NCBI RefSeq assembly: GCF_001723355.1
Contig: NZ_LPWE01000013.1
Coordinates: forward strand, 434,001 to 498,000
DNA: 64,000 bases
From: Methyloceanibacter stevinii
GTDB taxonomy: Bacteria > Pseudomonadota > Alphaproteobacteria > Rhizobiales > Methyloligellaceae
Reading direction: 5' to 3'
Below the pieces are notes generated by a model. The model did not search any database and was not told the origin of the DNA. It worked only from the letters and a program-made list of their open reading frames with translations. This document shows positions 14,501-56,860 of the stretch, in pieces (position 1 is the stretch's first letter; each line of letters starts with the position of its first letter). A program made the translations under genes and the position numbers.

Positions 14501-15098
14501 CGGGGCTGGCAACCTTCTCGGCGAGGAACAGTCCGGCCACATCCGCGAAGTCGGTTTCGAGCTTTACCAGTCCATGCTCGAGGAAGCCGTTGCCGCGTTG
14601 CGGGAGGGCGAGGGCGGCACGATCGAGGATCAGTGGAGCCCACGCATCAATCTCGGCACATCGGTCCTCATCCCCGACGCGTATGTTCCCGACCTACAGG
14701 TTCGTCTCGGCCTCTACCGGCGTCTGTCGGGTGTCGAGACCCAAGAGGCCATCGAGGCCTTCGCGGCGGAGTTGATCGACCGTTTCGGTCCGTTGCCGGA
14801 CGAAGTGCGCCATCTCCTGGATGTGGTCGAGATCAAGGGGCTCTGCCGTCAGGCCAATGTCGAGCAGATCGATGCGGGACCCAAGGGGCTCGTTGTGGCG
14901 TTCCGGAATAACGAGTTCGCCAATCCCGAAGGGCTCATGCGCATGATCAGCAAGTATGCGCGCAAGACCAAGGTGCAGCCCGATCAGAAGCTGGTCTTCT
15001 ACGGCAATTGGCCGAGTGCGGAAGATCGCCTGATCGGCGCGCGGGACTTCCTCAAAGAGCTTGCCAAGATCGCCGGCGCGGCCAAGGCGGCAGCTTAG
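11586..15098 (+). CDS. mfd: Transcription-repair coupling factor Mfd (three frameshifts here)
   Basis: Mfd removes RNA polymerase stalled at lesions and recruits UvrA. All parts are present in order: the UvrB-homology region (LNFPAWDSVPYDRV, YAVRGGILDLFPPGGQPVRLD), the RNA-polymerase interaction domain (GDLVVHADHGIGRFVGL), Walker A (CGDVGFGKTEVALRA), the DEEQ box (LLIIDEEQHFGVKHKERLK), SATPIPRTLQLAMSG, QLRGRVGRS and a C-terminal TRCF domain. The frame changes near 11985, 12194 and 12977. Each change equals loss of one base, for example SIRAFNPETQRT is restored by one T. Correcting all three gives about 1171 residues, the normal length. The clean conservation on both sides argues for sequence errors. 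Confidence 0.93.
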
Positions 15099-15108
15099 CT
15101 GAATCGCA

Positions 15109-15996
15109 ATGTCCAATGAAAAAGAGCTGCTGAAATTGGATGACTACCGGCGGGTGTTCTGCGGGCTCTTGTCACGACAGGTGAGACTGATCGACGTCGC
15201 TATTCATTCAATCTTGAAGCGCGACGAGTTCGAAGGTGATCAGCAAGTGGAGGTTCAAACCATACTACTCATGCTGCAGGGCATGGGAGTGTCGGCCCAC
15301 TCAATCCTAAATCTGAGTCAGACGATCAATATGGGCGTAAGAGACTGCTACGGAATTGCCCGCACAGTAGTCGAAACTGGAATCAATATTGCCTACATCG
15401 TTGCTGGCGGAAGCGACACAGTCCAGAAAGCACGGCGTCACGCAGAGCAGAAGACATTCAGGGATCTGAACCGTACGGCGGTGATCGGGCCCTTTATGTT
15501 CAAAGCGGCACGACTAGGTCCTCTCCCGGATGCAAGTGCCATTCCGGGCCTCAAAGAGGCTCTGGACGAATTCACCAACAAAAAAGGTCGTGAGATTCGC
15601 AGCTGGACTAACGACAACATAGACGATCGTTTGCACCAGATTGAAGAGCGTTTCCCAGGGGGCACCCTGCTTTTCGCGGGAGCACTAGCTCAGGTTTATC
15701 GATATTCATCAGAAATCCTTCACGGCACGTATTTCGGTTCGATCTATTTCTGGACGGGAGGAAGCAAGCGGCCCTCCAATCGTGCCGAAACAGAGTGGGT
15801 CCTATTCTCTACGCATCTAGTGTCTGTTATCTCTGCCTGCCTCTTTGCAATCAGGGCAGTGATTGAGATCCTGGAGCGGCACTATGGAATGGTGGAAACA
15901 AAAGAAGAAAATGCTCGGATACTTGAGCTTCTGGTGGAAACCGTCGAAGAGCATCTAGTTCACCTATCTCCGGAGGATTTCTTCGGGCCAGCCTAG
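15109..15996 (+). CDS. Accessory DUF5677-like helical protein
   Basis: This is a 295-residue soluble protein of unknown function. It resembles the DUF5677 type: a helical core with RTVVETGINIAYI (Arg85, Glu89) and later RYSSEILHGTYFG (His205-Gly206), a pattern reminiscent of HEPN-like helical bundles. The codon use and base composition are visibly more AT-rich than in mfd and the following ligase, which suggests horizontal acquisition. It starts ten bases after the mfd stop and its last bases overlap the stop of the convergent ligase gene, so it is wedged tightly into the site. No toxin partner or repeat is seen at its edges. The family call is moderate and no function is claimed. Confidence 0.7.
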   Translation: MSNEKELLKLDDYRRVFCGLLSRQVRLIDVAIHSILKRDEFEGDQQVEVQTILLMLQGMGVSAHSILNLSQTINMGVRDCYGIARTVVETGINIAYIVAGGSDTVQKARRHAEQKTFRDLNRTAVIGPFMFKAARLGPLPDASAIPGLKEALDEFTNKKGREIRSWTNDNIDDRLHQIEERFPGGTLLFAGALAQVYRYSSEILHGTYFGSIYFWTGGSKRPSNRAETEWVLFSTHLVSVISACLFAIRAVIEILERHYGMVETKEENARILELLVETVEEHLVHLSPEDFFGPA

Positions 15997-52639: not shown

Positions 52640-53371
52640 ATGGACTGGAGCGACGAAGGCATCTTCCTGAGCGGCAAGCCACTTGGCGAGGCCAACCTCA
52701 TCGCCGAGGTGTTGACGCTCGAGCATGGCCGCCATCTCGGCCTGGTGCGCGGAGGGCGCTCCCGCCGCATTCGCCCGACGCTCCAACCCGGCAACCTCGT
52801 CCGCGTCACTTGGCGCGCGCGTCTTGCCGAGCATCTCGGCGGTTATAATGTCGAACTGATGGAGGCCCACGGGGCACGCGCGCTCGACGACCCGCGCGCG
52901 CTTGCGGCGATCGGCATGCTCGGTGAGTTCGTGAAGCTCCTGCCCGAACGGGACCCGCACCCGGAGCTCTACGCCACGACGCTGCATGTGCTGCGGTCCT
53001 TCGCCGAGCCCGATATCTGGCCGGCGCTGCTCGTGTACTGGGAGATGCAGCTGCTCCAGGAGATCGGTTTCGGTCTCGACCTCACGTCCTGTGCCGCGAC
53101 GGGGAGCACGGAGGAGCTTATCTACGTGTCGCCGAAATCGGGGCGGGCGGTCAGCCGCGAGGCCGGCACTCCCTACGCGGACAAGATGCTGCCGCTGCCG
53201 CAATTTCTGATCGACAGTTCCGCCTCGCTCGCCCCCACCGACGTCGTCGCGGGCTTCGGGCTCACCGGCTTCTTTCTGGAGAGGGACGCGCTCGCGCCGC
53301 ACGGCCTCAAATTCCCCGATGCGCGCAACCGCCTGCTCGATCTCCTACGGCGGGAGCCTCACGCCGCTTGA
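52640..53371 (+). CDS. recO: DNA repair protein RecO
   Basis: RecO helps load RecA onto SSB-coated DNA in the RecFOR pathway. The 243-residue protein has an OB-fold N-terminus (WSDEGIFLSGKPLGEANLIA, VLTLEHGRHLGLVRGGRSRR), the middle helical domain (DDPRALAAIGMLGEFVKLLP, PALLVYWEMQLLQEIGFGLD) and a C-terminus LLDLLRREPHAA. The last ~20 bases of the gene are repeated at 54556-54584 behind the next gene. The frame is intact, so an insertion at this place would leave RecO unchanged. Confidence 0.95.
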   Translation: MDWSDEGIFLSGKPLGEANLIAEVLTLEHGRHLGLVRGGRSRRIRPTLQPGNLVRVTWRARLAEHLGGYNVELMEAHGARALDDPRALAAIGMLGEFVKLLPERDPHPELYATTLHVLRSFAEPDIWPALLVYWEMQLLQEIGFGLDLTSCAATGSTEELIYVSPKSGRAVSREAGTPYADKMLPLPQFLIDSSASLAPTDVVAGFGLTGFFLERDALAPHGLKFPDARNRLLDLLRREPHAA

Positions 53372-53379
53372 GGCGACTC
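53351..53379. repeat. 29-bp direct repeat, left copy (3' end of recO)
   Basis: This is a perfect match, over 29 bases, to 54556-54584; the flanking bases differ on both sides. It spans the last seven codons of recO and eight bases beyond the stop. It contains an imperfect palindrome, GCCTCA-N7-TGAGGC (53356-53361 and 53369-53374). Confidence 0.95.
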
Positions 53380-53399
53380 CCACTGCTATTGAGGGACAG

Positions 53400-54551
53400 A
53401 TGACGCTGTTTCCTGAAGGTCCAAGAGCACGCAGAGAATACAAGGTGCGTGGTGAACGTCCCTTTGACTTCTACAACTCGTGCGGCCGTGCAGGTTACGA
53501 CGAGTTTCGGGCATTGGTGAACGCGTGGCTCTCCGCGTTGCCTGCGCCAGATCAGCAGGAACTCATCGCGAGGATGCGGCGTGGAAGCGACCGAGAGTTC
53601 GACAGTGGAATTGTGGAGCTTGTTGTCCACACATTACTCGTGCGGTTGGGATTTGAGGTCGAGGTCCATCCGCAACTCTCCCATACGAGCCGCCGACCCG
53701 ATTTCCTTGCAAAACTAGCCGACACCGATCAGCACATTTTCGTTGAAGTAACAACGATGAACCCGCCCGAAAGGACAACTGCGGAAAGAAACAGGGAGGA
53801 CATGCTGTTCGAAACAATAAACCGGGCAAGACTCCCTGCTGGCTGCTACCTGGGATACGAACTCATCGAAGGATCTCCCCGAAGTCCGGCATTGCGCAGA
53901 GTCGCTTCCACTGTGGAGCAGTGGGCACAAAGGAACAACCAACTTGCAAGAAAAGCCATCGTCTCCGAAGTCTTCGACTTCGATGGTTGGACTGTAGAAC
54001 TCCAGTTGATTGCTGGAGAAAGCAAAAAGGTGGCTTCTAGAGCGATCGGATTGATGGGTACTGAAGCCAGGTGGATCGCTCCACACCTGGACCTTCGCTC
54101 CGCTCTTGAACGTAAGGCGCGCCGGTACGGTGAATTGAATGCGCCATATCTCATCGTTGCAGCCGAAGCCAGGGAGGACATGTGGAACACAGGAAGTTCC
54201 TCGGAGACGATGCTTGACGCGTTGCTCGGAGATAGGGTCTTTCGCGTGGTCAAGGGACGTAGACCGACGCCTGGACGTGCAAGGAATGGGTTCTGGTTCG
54301 CCCGGGGTGCACCATGCAATCAAAACGTCAGCGGGGTGCTCACAATTCCGACGAGCCAACTATGGGCTTTGCGCAGCACTCATCATCAAGCGCTTTTGGC
54401 GATCAACCCATGGGCACAACATCTACTGCCAGATGAGTTTCGCAGGTTGCGCAACATCGGAAGAACCGACGATGGCTGGAGTGTGCAGGAAAACAATCTG
54501 TTGGCCGACCTGCTTGACGTGCCCGAGCCGTGGCCTCCCGAAGAGCAATAA
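53400..54551 (+). CDS. Accessory protein with PD-(D/E)XK nuclease-like motif
   Basis: This is a 383-residue cytosolic protein with no named relative recognised. The ATG at 53400 follows GAGGGAC. Residues about 66-120 have the layout of a PD-(D/E)XK nuclease core: Glu73 in a helix (GIVELVVHTLL), a PD pair (SHTSRRPDFLAKL, Asp101) and a strand HIFVEVTTM (Glu116-Val-Thr, where Lys would be classical). The remainder is mixed alpha/beta with no clear second domain. Codon use is more AT-rich than in recO and parC. It is the only gene between the two copies of the 29-bp repeat. A defence or restriction role is a hypothesis. Confidence 0.72.
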   Translation: MTLFPEGPRARREYKVRGERPFDFYNSCGRAGYDEFRALVNAWLSALPAPDQQELIARMRRGSDREFDSGIVELVVHTLLVRLGFEVEVHPQLSHTSRRPDFLAKLADTDQHIFVEVTTMNPPERTTAERNREDMLFETINRARLPAGCYLGYELIEGSPRSPALRRVASTVEQWAQRNNQLARKAIVSEVFDFDGWTVELQLIAGESKKVASRAIGLMGTEARWIAPHLDLRSALERKARRYGELNAPYLIVAAEAREDMWNTGSSSETMLDALLGDRVFRVVKGRRPTPGRARNGFWFARGAPCNQNVSGVLTIPTSQLWALRSTHHQALLAINPWAQHLLPDEFRRLRNIGRTDDGWSVQENNLLADLLDVPEPWPPEEQ

Positions 54552-54555
54552 TTGC

Positions 54556-54584
54556 CGGGAGCCTCACGCCGCTTGAGGCGACTC
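54556..54584. repeat. 29-bp direct repeat, right copy
   Basis: This is identical to 53351-53379. It lies five bases after the stop of the accessory gene and 23 bases before the parC start. Together with the left copy it brackets a 1.2-kb segment that contains only one gene. Confidence 0.95.
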
Positions 54585-54607
54585 ACGCGATGGGTTAGCC
54601 AAACGAT

Positions 54608-56860
54608 ATGGGAAAACGCGCGACGCCCCCCGAGCAGGGGCCTATTGAGCCGATCAATCTGAAAGAGGCGCTGGAAGAGCGCTATCTCGCCTACGCGCTG
54701 TCCACGATTACCCACCGGGCGCTCCCGGACGTGCGCGACGGGCTGAAGCCGGTCCACCGGCGGCTGCTCTACGCCATGCAGCAATTGCGCCTGCAGCCGC
54801 AGGGCGAGTTCCGCAAATGCGCGAAGATCGTCGGCGACACGATGGGCAACTTCCATCCCCACGGCAATCAGGCGATCTACGACGCGCTGGCGCGGCTGGC
54901 GCAGGATTTCGCCGTGCGTTATCCGCTGATCGACGGGCAGGGGAACTTCGGCAATATAGACGGGGATAACCCCGCCGCCGACCGCTACACCGAAGCGCGG
55001 CTGACGGACATTGCCGCCCGGCTTCTGGAAGGCATCGACGAGGACACGGTCGACTTCCGCCCGAACTACGACGGGCGCGAAATGGAGCCATCCGTGCTGC
55101 CGGCGAACTTCCCGAACCTGCTCGCCAACGGTGCGTCCGGCATCGCCGTCGGCATGGCGACGAATATCCCGCCCCACAATGTGGGCGAGCTGTGCGACGC
55201 CGCGCTCCATCTCATCAAGTTCCCGAATGCCACGGCCGACAAGCTTGTCTCGTTTGTGCCGGGGCCGGATTTGCCCACGGGCGGCATCATTGTCGAGCCG
55301 CGCGAGCAGATCCTCGAAGCGTACAAGACGGGGCGGGGATCTTTCCGCTTGCGCGCACGCTGGGAGAAGGAAGACGCGGGCCGCGGCACCTACCAGGTCG
55401 TCGTCACAGAGATTCCCTACCAGGTTCCGAAGGCCCGGCTCGTGGCGCGCATTGCCGAACTGCTTCAGGCCAAGAAGTTGCCGCTTCTGGCCGATGTACG
55501 CGACGAGTCGGCCGAGGACGTGCGGCTGGTGCTGGAGCCGAAGAGCCGCAGCGTCGATCCCTCACTTCTGATGGAGTCGCTGTTCAAGCTGACCGAGCTC
55601 GAGACCCGCGTCTCGCTCAACATGAACGTGCTGAGCGAGGGCAAGATCCCGAACGTGCTCGGTCTGCGCCAGGTTCTGCTGGAATGGCTCGATCACCGGC
55701 AGGAAGTATTGGTCCGGCGCTCCAACTTCCGGCTGTCGAAGATCGACCACCGGCTGGAGGTGCTTGAAGGCTACCTGATCGTCTATCTGAACCTCGATCG
55801 GGTCATCCAGATCGTGCGCGAAGAGGACGAGCCAAAACCCGTCCTGATGAAGGAGTTCAAGCTCACCGACGTTCAGGCCGAGGCCATCCTCAATATGCGG
55901 CTCCGCGCCTTGCGGAGACTGGAGGAGATGGAGATCCGGCGCGAACACGACGATCTCACCAAGGAGCGGAAAGAGCTGAAGGCGCTCCTCAAATCCGAAG
56001 ACCAGCAGTGGAAGCGGATCGGCGACGAGATCAAGGAGATCAAAGACGCCTTCGGGCCGAAGACCGGGCTCGGACGCCGTCGCACCACCTTCGACGAAGC
56101 GCCCGAAGACGTCGCCGACGTTCTTGCCGAAGCGATGATCGAGAAGGAGCCTGTCACCGTCGTCTTGTCGGATAAAGGATGGATACGGACGATTAAGGGG
56201 CACAATACCGACACCTCGAAACTGTCGTTCAAGGATGGCGACAGGTTGCGGCAGCTCCTGCACGCCCAGACGACGGACACGCTGTTGCTGTTCGCCACAA
56301 ACGGCCGCTTCTATTCGCTCAGCGCCGACAAGCTGCCGGGCGGGCGCGGACACGGCGAGCCCTTCCGGCTGATGATCGACATCGAGGACGCAGGCGACTG
56401 CGTCGAGCTGATCGTGCACGAGGCGGGCCGGAAGCTGATGGTCGCCTCCACGGCCGGATACGGTTTCGTGGTTGCCGAGGACGATGTGATCGCCATGACC
56501 CGCAAGGGCAAGCAGGTGCTGAATGTGAAGGGGGACGACGAGGCCGCCGTCTTGGCGCCGGTCTCGGGCGACAGCGTTGCCGTCATCGGTGACAACAGAA
56601 AGCTGCTGCTGTTTCCCCTTTCGGAACTGCCTGAGATGCCGCGGGGCAAGGGCGTGCGATTGCAGCGCTATCGCGACGGCGGGCTGGCGGACGCCAAGAC
56701 CTTCTCGAAGAAGGAAGGGCTCGTCTATATCGACGCGGCGGGCCGGAGCTTCACCCTGTCGTCGGCGGATTTGCGCGATTGGTGGGGTGCTCGCGCCGCA
56801 GCGGGCCGGCTGCCGCCGCGCGGTTTCCCCAAGTCGGGCAAGTTCGGCGAAAAGTTCTAG
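54608..56860 (+). CDS. parC: DNA topoisomerase IV subunit A
   Basis: ParC cuts and rejoins DNA in topoisomerase IV to unlink daughter chromosomes. The 750-residue protein has [40 protein letters not shown] (quinolone-resistance region), the catalytic Tyr in [20 protein letters not shown], the tower and coiled-coil domain ([20 protein letters not shown]) and a C-terminal beta-pinwheel ([32 protein letters not shown]). The quinolone-region residues are Asn-Gln where E. coli has Asp-Ser. The length is normal and the frame intact. It is convergent with bpt. Confidence 0.95.

What the first reader, a model, noticed from the sequence alone, without database searches (positions are those of the whole stretch)
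53351..54584. One-gene accessory cassette between recO and parC, bracketed by a perfect 29-bp repeat of the recO 3' end
A gene absent from the usual recO-parC junction is flanked by identical 29-bp sequences. The left copy is the real end of recO (last seven codons, stop and eight bases); the right copy stands alone before parC. The repeat carries a partial palindrome. This is what site-specific insertion into a conserved gene end would leave, with the target gene kept intact, but the segment is only 1.2 kb and has no recombinase. It may be a non-autonomous mobile unit moved in trans, or a product of repeat-mediated recombination. A reusable insertion hotspot that keeps recO functional would be a new system.
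Basis: seen in the sequence. Interest (0 to 1): 0.72.

Follow-up and report, generated by a model that had tools for sequence, protein, structure and literature searches.

The report
Defence gene slotted between recO and parC
A foreign gene that looks like a phage-defence nuclease sits between two housekeeping genes of a methylotroph, and the short repeat around it is an extra copy of a stretch that ends one gene and also starts the other's likely promoter, so both neighbours can keep working.

Summary
In detail: a perfect 29-bp direct repeat (53351-53379, 54556-54584) brackets one foreign gene (53400-54551), and no third copy was found in the genome. The genus is Methyloceanibacter. Of 17 genus genomes, 16 have a readable recO-parC junction: 5 bare, 2 sharing a 17-bp longer form with a partial second copy, 5 with a CAP-domain gene, 2 with other short spacers, and 2 with lone defence-type genes. 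Those two are the window's nuclease-like gene and, in G004, a DRT4/6-type reverse transcriptase flanked by a 15-bp repeat of the same core.

CTTGAG lies 36 bases (35 in one) before the parC start in 15 of the 16. At bare junctions the recO stop codon lies inside that hexamer, so recO's end and parC's likely promoter overlap. Cargo spares both genes only if the overlap is duplicated. Of 23 simple insertions compared among three genomes, the only border repeats above random are these two and one tRNA-linked island.

The only tyrosine recombinases found in this genome are XerC- and XerD-like; the repeat is not dif-like. How the duplication arose is inferred: local duplication or template switching. 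A recombinase in trans, or recombinase-free cassette exchange, is not excluded. New variant of a known kind.

The parts
52640..53371 (+). recO, intact; ends ...RREPHAA*
   Evidence: ORF and tblastn across relatives
53351..53379 (+). left copy of the 29-bp repeat: last six recO codons, stop codon and 8 bases
   Evidence: only two copies in the genome
53367..53372 (+). CTTGAG with the recO stop (53369-53371) inside it; at bare junctions this hexamer is also the inferred parC -35 box
   Evidence: sequence; bare junctions of 5 genus genomes
53391..53395 (+). GAGGG, probable ribosome-binding site of the cargo gene
   Evidence: read from sequence; inference
53400..54551 (+). cargo gene, 383 aa; motif E..RPDF..FVEVT; defence-associated family, probably a PD-(D/E)XK-type nuclease
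   Evidence: 1 of 17 genus genomes; homologues beside DISARM, CBASS and methylase genes; motif in 7 of 7; weak PADLOC hits PD-T7-1 1.9e-4 and PD-T7-5 4.2e-4
54556..54584 (+). right copy of the 29-bp repeat
54572..54577 (+). CTTGAG, inferred -35 box of the parC promoter, supplied by the right repeat copy
   Evidence: 19 of 23 genus-plus-family junctions have it at -36 (one of them at -35); 0.01 expected from shuffles
54595..54600 (+). TTAGCC, inferred -10 box of parC, 17 bases after CTTGAG and 7 before the ATG
   Evidence: same position in relatives, where it often reads CTAAGC or TTAAGC; function inferred
54608..56860 (+). parC
   Evidence: ORF and tblastn

Best explanation
This is a variable junction between two conserved genes that has received a lone defence-type gene with no promoter of its own seen. 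At bare junctions the recO stop codon lies inside the likely -35 box of the parC promoter, so the two genes overlap functionally. Foreign DNA can settle there without harm only if the overlap is duplicated: the left copy then ends recO and the right copy starts the parC promoter. In this genome the duplicated stretch is 29 bp and the cargo is a nuclease-like gene, probably transcribed by read-through from recO. In G004 the stretch is 15 bp and the cargo is a DRT4/6-type reverse transcriptase. Shown: the insertion, the empty sites, the second cargo with an overlapping repeat, and the conserved hexamer at fixed distance. Inferred: that the hexamer is a promoter element; that the duplication arose by local duplication or replication template switching, either before the cargo (as the 17-bp duplication without cargo shared by G009 and G013 suggests) or with it; and the defence role.
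For: Bare junction with a single copy in G014, G003, G006, G005 and G002; in 5 of 5 the recO stop lies inside CTTGAG. CTTGAG at -36 (one at -35) from parC in 15 of 16 genus and 19 of 23 genus-plus-family junctions, 0.01 expected (0.04 with a looser pattern). G004 carries a 15-bp repeat with the same core around a reverse transcriptase scoring Drt6 413.7 and Drt4 309.2 bits in PADLOC. Each cargo occurs in 1 of 17 genus genomes. Of 23 distinct simple insertions of 300 bp or more, only these two and a tRNA-linked 9.8-kb island have border words above 12; the other 20 have 5-9. G009 and G013 share a 17-bp longer junction holding a partial second copy and no cargo. Cargo G+C is 53-56% in the four windows fully inside it, against 60-68% outside. 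No jump in divergence at the flanks against G014. Homologues lie beside DrmA/DrmB, a CBASS cyclase with NucC, and a DNA methylase.
Against: Keeping both genes needs only about 6 duplicated bases, yet 29 and 15 are duplicated, so selection alone does not explain the length. No promoter was measured, and a sigma-70 pattern scan of 53000-54700 found none, the parC one included (its consensus is not the alphaproteobacterial one). G015 in the genus and G024, G022 and G027 in the family lack CTTGAG at that place. The duplication in G009 and G013 aligns as one shared event, not two, and may be a scar of lost cargo rather than a first step. Only one genome per species is held, so within-species gain and loss was not seen. 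The nuclease fold is unproven: no Pfam family above cut-off, no solved-structure match, no profile match to NucC or to a neighbour in L160, and a useless single-sequence model (pLDDT 35).
Confidence: 0.53

Rival explanations
1. Site-specific integration: a recombinase acting in trans recognises the recO end (att-like core CTTGAGGCGACTC) and inserts small non-autonomous units, as integrases do at tRNA ends.
For: Two different cargoes share the core in two species, and these are the only above-chance border repeats besides a tRNA-linked island. Resolvase-type genes in long frames (about 600-650 aa) are present in all three genomes compared.
Against: Repeat ends differ (29 against 15 bp). This genome shows only two tyrosine-recombinase matches, one above the XerD cut-off and one best scored as XerC though below its cut-off. 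The repeat is not dif-like (12 of 28 identities; 11.9% of shuffles do as well). No exact copy of the core was found in viral contigs as a possible attP. Large serine integrases would leave only a few identical bases (recalled).
Confidence: 0.12
2. Minimal mobile element: whole-gene cassettes are swapped between strains by ordinary homologous recombination in recO and parC, after one insertion elsewhere; the repeat came along.
For: Different whole genes between the same two conserved genes in relatives fit the definition quoted in PMC3082526 (passages seen).
Against: Flank identity to G014 shows no foreign tract: 93.1% just left and 96.2% just right, against 94.1% overall. Exchange does not create the duplication in the first place.
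Confidence: 0.15
3. Recombinase-free cassette: recombination between the repeats releases a 1,205-bp circle with one repeat copy, which can re-enter any bare recO end by a single crossover, so the repeat acts as a homology address.
For: Exact 29/29 identity of the copies, and G014's single copy carries the same 29 letters, so a circle could pair with a bare site.
Against: No circle was looked for or seen, no second genome with the same cargo was found in the genus, and 15 bp in G004 is short for homologous recombination.
Confidence: 0.12
4. Insertion by non-homologous end joining of a staggered break, whose filled ends give the repeat.
For: Variable repeat length and clean joins; Ku gene in G004.
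Against: No Ku match in this 99.6%-complete genome nor in G014 (9 of 17 genus genomes have one).
Confidence: 0.06

Closest known systems
Minimal mobile elements of Neisseria (Saunders and Snyder 2002; Snyder 2007, both seen only as references in PMC3082526)
   Same: Two conserved genes with different whole-gene cassettes between them in different relatives, and no recombinase in the cassette.
   Different: Here the cassette is bracketed by a duplicated gene end that doubles as a likely promoter element. Exchange by flanking homology is not shown, and comparison is between species, not strains.
Core defence hotspots (Johnson 2023, PMC10250203, passages seen)
   Same: Defence genes between fixed core genes, not tied to one class of mobile element.
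   Different: Those are large regions (cDHS1 1-224 kb) beside RNA genes in many isolates; here a single gene in each of 2 of 16 junctions.
Integrative elements at gene 3' ends (tRNA islands; recalled kind)
   Same: Direct repeat of a gene's 3' end, gene kept whole; G004's 9.8-kb island looks like a true example.
   Different: No integrase ORF in the 1.2-kb segment, and repeat ends differ between cargoes.
Defence-associated reverse transcriptases DRT4/DRT6 (PMC13213688, passages seen)
   Same: G004's cargo is a lone RT gene, as DRT4 and DRT6 are described.
   Different: It concerns the second cargo, not the window's gene.

Membership tests
Minimal mobile element | two conserved genes with different whole-gene cassettes in different relatives | tested here: met
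   16 of 17 genus genomes readable; nuclease-like gene, RT gene, CAP gene, or nothing; species, not strains, were compared
Minimal mobile element | cassette brought in by homologous recombination in the flanking genes | tested here: inconclusive
   no foreign tract in the flanks against G014; same-species donors cannot be seen
Integrase-borne island at a gene end | its own or a resident integrase using the repeat as attachment core | tested here: not met
   no recombinase ORF in the segment; only XerC/XerD-like tyrosine recombinases found in the genome; activity not testable here
Xer/dif-type module | flanking sites resemble dif (28 bp) | tested here: not met
   12 of 28 identities, reached by 11.9% of shuffles (dif letters recalled)
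Integron gene cassette | attC site with GTTRRRY-type cores | tested here: not met
   no GTT or AAC in the 29 bp; consensus recalled; no dedicated attC search was run
Transposon with target-site duplication | fixed short duplication plus terminal inverted repeats | tested here: not met
   duplications of 29 and 15 bp; no inverted repeat of 12 nt or more pairs the two borders
PD-(D/E)XK nuclease | E...PD...(D/E)xK motif | tested here: inconclusive
   PDF and an E 14-16 residues after its D in 7 of 7, but the lysine position is T, V, I or K (K in 1 of 7); no profile support
PD-(D/E)XK nuclease | restriction-endonuclease-like fold | tested here: inconclusive
   single-sequence model pLDDT 35, unusable
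Core defence hotspot | recurrent occupation by varied defence systems | tested here: inconclusive
   2 of 16 genus junctions hold defence-type genes; of 9 ORFs from other families' junctions 1 has weak PADLOC hits (best 2.8e-5)

The most novel reading that the evidence does not exclude
A recombinase-free gene cassette system: because recO's end and parC's promoter overlap, every tolerated cargo is framed by the same address sequence. Framed cargoes can then leave as circles and re-enter bare recO ends by plain recombination, giving a reusable slot for single defence genes that never harms its essential neighbours.
Probability: 0.12. Interest if true: 0.75.

Novelty: new variant of a known kind. 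Interest (0 to 1): 0.42.

Why it matters
Many lone defence genes sit between core genes with no visible vehicle. This case suggests a simple rule for where they can land: at overlaps of a gene end and a promoter, cargo survives only with a duplicated overlap, which looks like an attachment site but may be a mark of selection. The rule can be tested across genomes. It also warns against reading every gene-end repeat as the work of an integrase. The cargo family itself, found beside DISARM and CBASS genes and without a Pfam family above cut-off, is a fair candidate for a phage-defence assay.

Tried and rejected
Hairpin in the repeat as a recombination or fork-stalling site: folds no better than shuffles. 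Xer/dif module: rejected. Phage carrier of the cargo or the site: no match in phage records. In viral contigs the window protein and two homologues gave no relative, a third homologue matched no pattern, and one homologue was found on a viral contig at 100% identity; no exact copy of the core was found there. Cargo relatives in genome contigs by the pattern method: none, though whole-genome search found five others in the order, one of them marginal at 4.5e-4. Known RNA at the junction: none at gathering threshold. Structure of the cargo: single-sequence model unusable, so no fold search was run. Repeat at the gyrB-linked homologue: none I judged above chance, and relatives were too distant to show the empty site. 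I lowered the best explanation from 0.55 to 0.53 for the first of these. Paper searches for recO-parC insertions, repeat-flanked lone genes and integrase-free defence hotspots listed nothing on this junction (listings only, open-licence library only). The cDHS, Vassallo, meningococcal and DRT papers were seen as abstract or passages; 'PD-T7-5' does not occur in the Vassallo main text.

Full report
OBSERVATION. The repeat is as described: 29 identical bases at 53351-53379 and 54556-54584. The left copy holds six sense codons, the stop and 8 bases of the recO end, not seven codons. The 26-bp core has only these two places in the genome at up to 3 mismatches. Between them is one ORF of 383 codons (ATG 53400, stop ending 54551), 20 bp after the left copy and 4 bp before the right. 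The segment has lower G+C (53-56% in the four windows fully inside the insert, 60-68% in windows outside it). It stands in a 519-kb contig of a 99.6%-complete assembly.

WHICH ORGANISM. The genus is Methyloceanibacter: recO relatives fetched with titles include M. marginalis (L091), whose contig length equals that of G007's, and five Methyloceanibacter MAGs whose contig lengths equal those of G006, G009, G005, G015 and G002.

JUNCTION SURVEY. A search with recO-cargo-parC DNA matched 54 of 61 genomes. The 17 genus genomes held were all included; G010 gave no match, so 16 junctions were read. Bare, 34 bp with the stop codon: G014, G003, G006, G005, G002. A form 17 bp longer, with a partial second copy of GCTTGAG and no cargo: G009 and G013; the two inserts align at the same place (55 of 68 bases alike over the last 68 before parC), so I count one shared event. 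In G013 the recO end is also shifted by one base relative to the others, which may be an assembly error. CAP-domain gene: G007, G012, G011, G001, G008 (Pfam CAP 1.7e-13 for G001's; relatives at the junction of the other four; G006 has a distant relative elsewhere). Other short spacers: G015, G016. Window cargo: G000. Reverse transcriptase: G004. The cargo gene is in 1 of 17 genus genomes and the RT in 1 of 17. On a recO+parC tree the CAP-bearing species mostly branch deeper and G000, G014 and G004 fall in a younger group; several supports are low, so I do not count events on it. Family neighbours carry other genes: a cupin in G023, a GYF-domain gene in G018. In other families, 9 ORFs from five junctions (L217, L218, L219, L066, L069) gave Pfam matches to proline dehydrogenase, ROK, flavin monooxygenase, GNAT acetyltransferase, alanine dehydrogenase, TetR and NmrA families in 7 and none in 2; one of the unmatched, in L218, has weak PADLOC hits (LmuB 2.8e-5). 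L220, L221 and L222 have no extra gene there.

THE SECOND CARGO. G004 has 1,808 bp between recO's last sense codon and parC. Its single large ORF, of 560 aa and in reverse orientation, is a reverse transcriptase (Pfam RVT_1 3.9e-9). NCBIfam's best model is Drt4 (193 bits, below its cut-off of 450); PADLOC's best is Drt6 (413.7 bits), then Drt4 (309.2). Its flanks share exactly CTTGAGGCGACTCAC. The window's repeat contains the first 13 of these 15 bases; the two repeats have different ends.

THE OVERLAP. In 19 of 23 genus-plus-family junctions CTTGAG stands 36 bases (35 in G016) before the parC start, against 0.01 expected from shuffles; in the genus 15 of 16, G015 lacking it; in the family G024, G022 and G027 lack it there. 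Seventeen bases later comes TTAGCC, CTAAGC, TTAAGC or similar, 7 bases before ATG. I read this as the parC promoter, perhaps giving a leaderless message; both are inference. In the 5 bare junctions the recO stop TGA lies inside CTTGAG. In the two genomes with defence-type cargo the hexamer stays with parC, and recO keeps a stop of its own. A duplication spanning the hexamer is therefore what an insertion needs in order to spare both genes.

IS THE REPEAT SPECIAL? I compared about 400 kb of G000 with 800 kb each of G014 and G004 (336-618 kb aligned per pair). There were 32 rows, which I merged by position and length into 23 distinct insertions of 300 bp or more whose counterpart gap is at most 80 bp. 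Border words: 29 (recO, G000), 15 (recO, G004) and 52 (9.8-kb island at a tRNA-like sequence in G004, with a tyrosine recombinase at its end); the other 20 have 5-9. Random flanks gave at most 12 in 400 draws. So both recO-parC insertions stand out. Selection for the overlap explains why a repeat is there, but not why it exceeds the few bases needed.

HOW THE REPEAT AROSE. The shared 17-bp duplication of G009 and G013 shows that the overlap can be duplicated without cargo. It is either a first step of the same kind or a scar of lost cargo; I cannot tell which. Against a dedicated recombinase: G000 has two tyrosine-recombinase matches, one above the XerD cut-off (330.3 bits) and one best scored as XerC (304.7, cut-off 335.15); the repeat is not dif-like; and the hairpin is not significant. 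G000 also has two resolvase-type matches, one of which scored far below the cut-offs of its best models; the other ORF was not recovered in the stretch I fetched. Ku is absent from G000 and G014 and present in G004, so end joining does not serve both. Flank divergence from G014 shows no foreign tract.

THE CARGO. No Pfam family passes its cut-off in any of 7 family members. PADLOC gives weak local hits to PD-T7-1 (1.9e-4) and PD-T7-5 (4.2e-4), and three of four homologues tested there also touch PD-T7-5 weakly. Relatives are scattered: 6 of 397 order genomes including its own and 21 plasmid records. The contexts I read: beside DrmA and DrmB (L160); after a CBASS cyclase with NucC (L158); next to a DNA methylase (L163, by PADLOC; L162, by eye, whose homologue also lies on a viral contig); among unnamed genes near IS elements (L159); among unnamed genes on a Bradyrhizobium plasmid (L157); and alone directly behind gyrB (L161), where 28 of 28 family genomes were matched but only its own over the cargo. 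The alignment holds PDF and a later E in 7 of 7, with lysine at the last motif position in 1 of 7. I take it as a degenerate PD-(D/E)XK-type nuclease used in phage defence, as an inference without fold support. A simple scan shows no promoter of its own, and it is probably read from the recO side.

KNOWN SYSTEMS. The closest concept is the minimal mobile element: conserved gene pairs with different whole-gene cassettes, incorporated by homologous recombination (passage in PMC3082526). The first half is met, the second inconclusive. Core defence hotspots (PMC10250203, passages) are larger. Island integration at gene ends needs an integrase, which was not found here.

VERDICT. A real insertion, absent from the closest relatives held, in a junction that relatives use for other cargo. 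The repeat is a duplicated overlap of the recO stop and the likely parC promoter. It is not an ancient fixed structure and not a generic repeat. The claim of a new site-specific system is not supported, while a recombinase-free cassette remains open.

Noticed in passing
window 15098-15989: A second lone-gene insertion absent from G014 and G004: a 295-aa ORF (15109-15996) directly behind an Mfd-like helicase ORF (named by eye); the host stop region (CAGC[CT]TAG) recurs at the far end, about 8 bp, within chance by the border-word test. Weak Pfam match DUF5677 below cut-off; no PADLOC match to the stretch tested.
   Followed up: partly
G004:C1:2070177-2079979 (L155, L156): A 9.8-kb island with a 52-bp exact border repeat in a tRNA-like sequence and a tyrosine recombinase at its end, about 28 kb from recO; site empty in G000 and G014.
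   Followed up: partly
L161:6967-8139: A homologue of the cargo starts directly behind the gyrB stop in G183; none of the other 27 family genomes matched over the cargo.
   Followed up: partly
L158:2846-7164: On an Acinetobacter plasmid a cargo homologue follows a CBASS cyclase, an AAA ATPase and a NucC nuclease gene, as if a last gene of that operon.
   Followed up: partly
L041, L043, L046, L047, L040 (recO-parC junction): A CAP-domain protein gene sits between recO and parC in five Methyloceanibacter genomes and was not found at that junction in the other 11 read.
   Followed up: partly
L218:1183-2730: A 515-aa ORF without Pfam match between recO and parC of another family has weak PADLOC hits to LmuB and other long defence proteins.
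   Followed up: no
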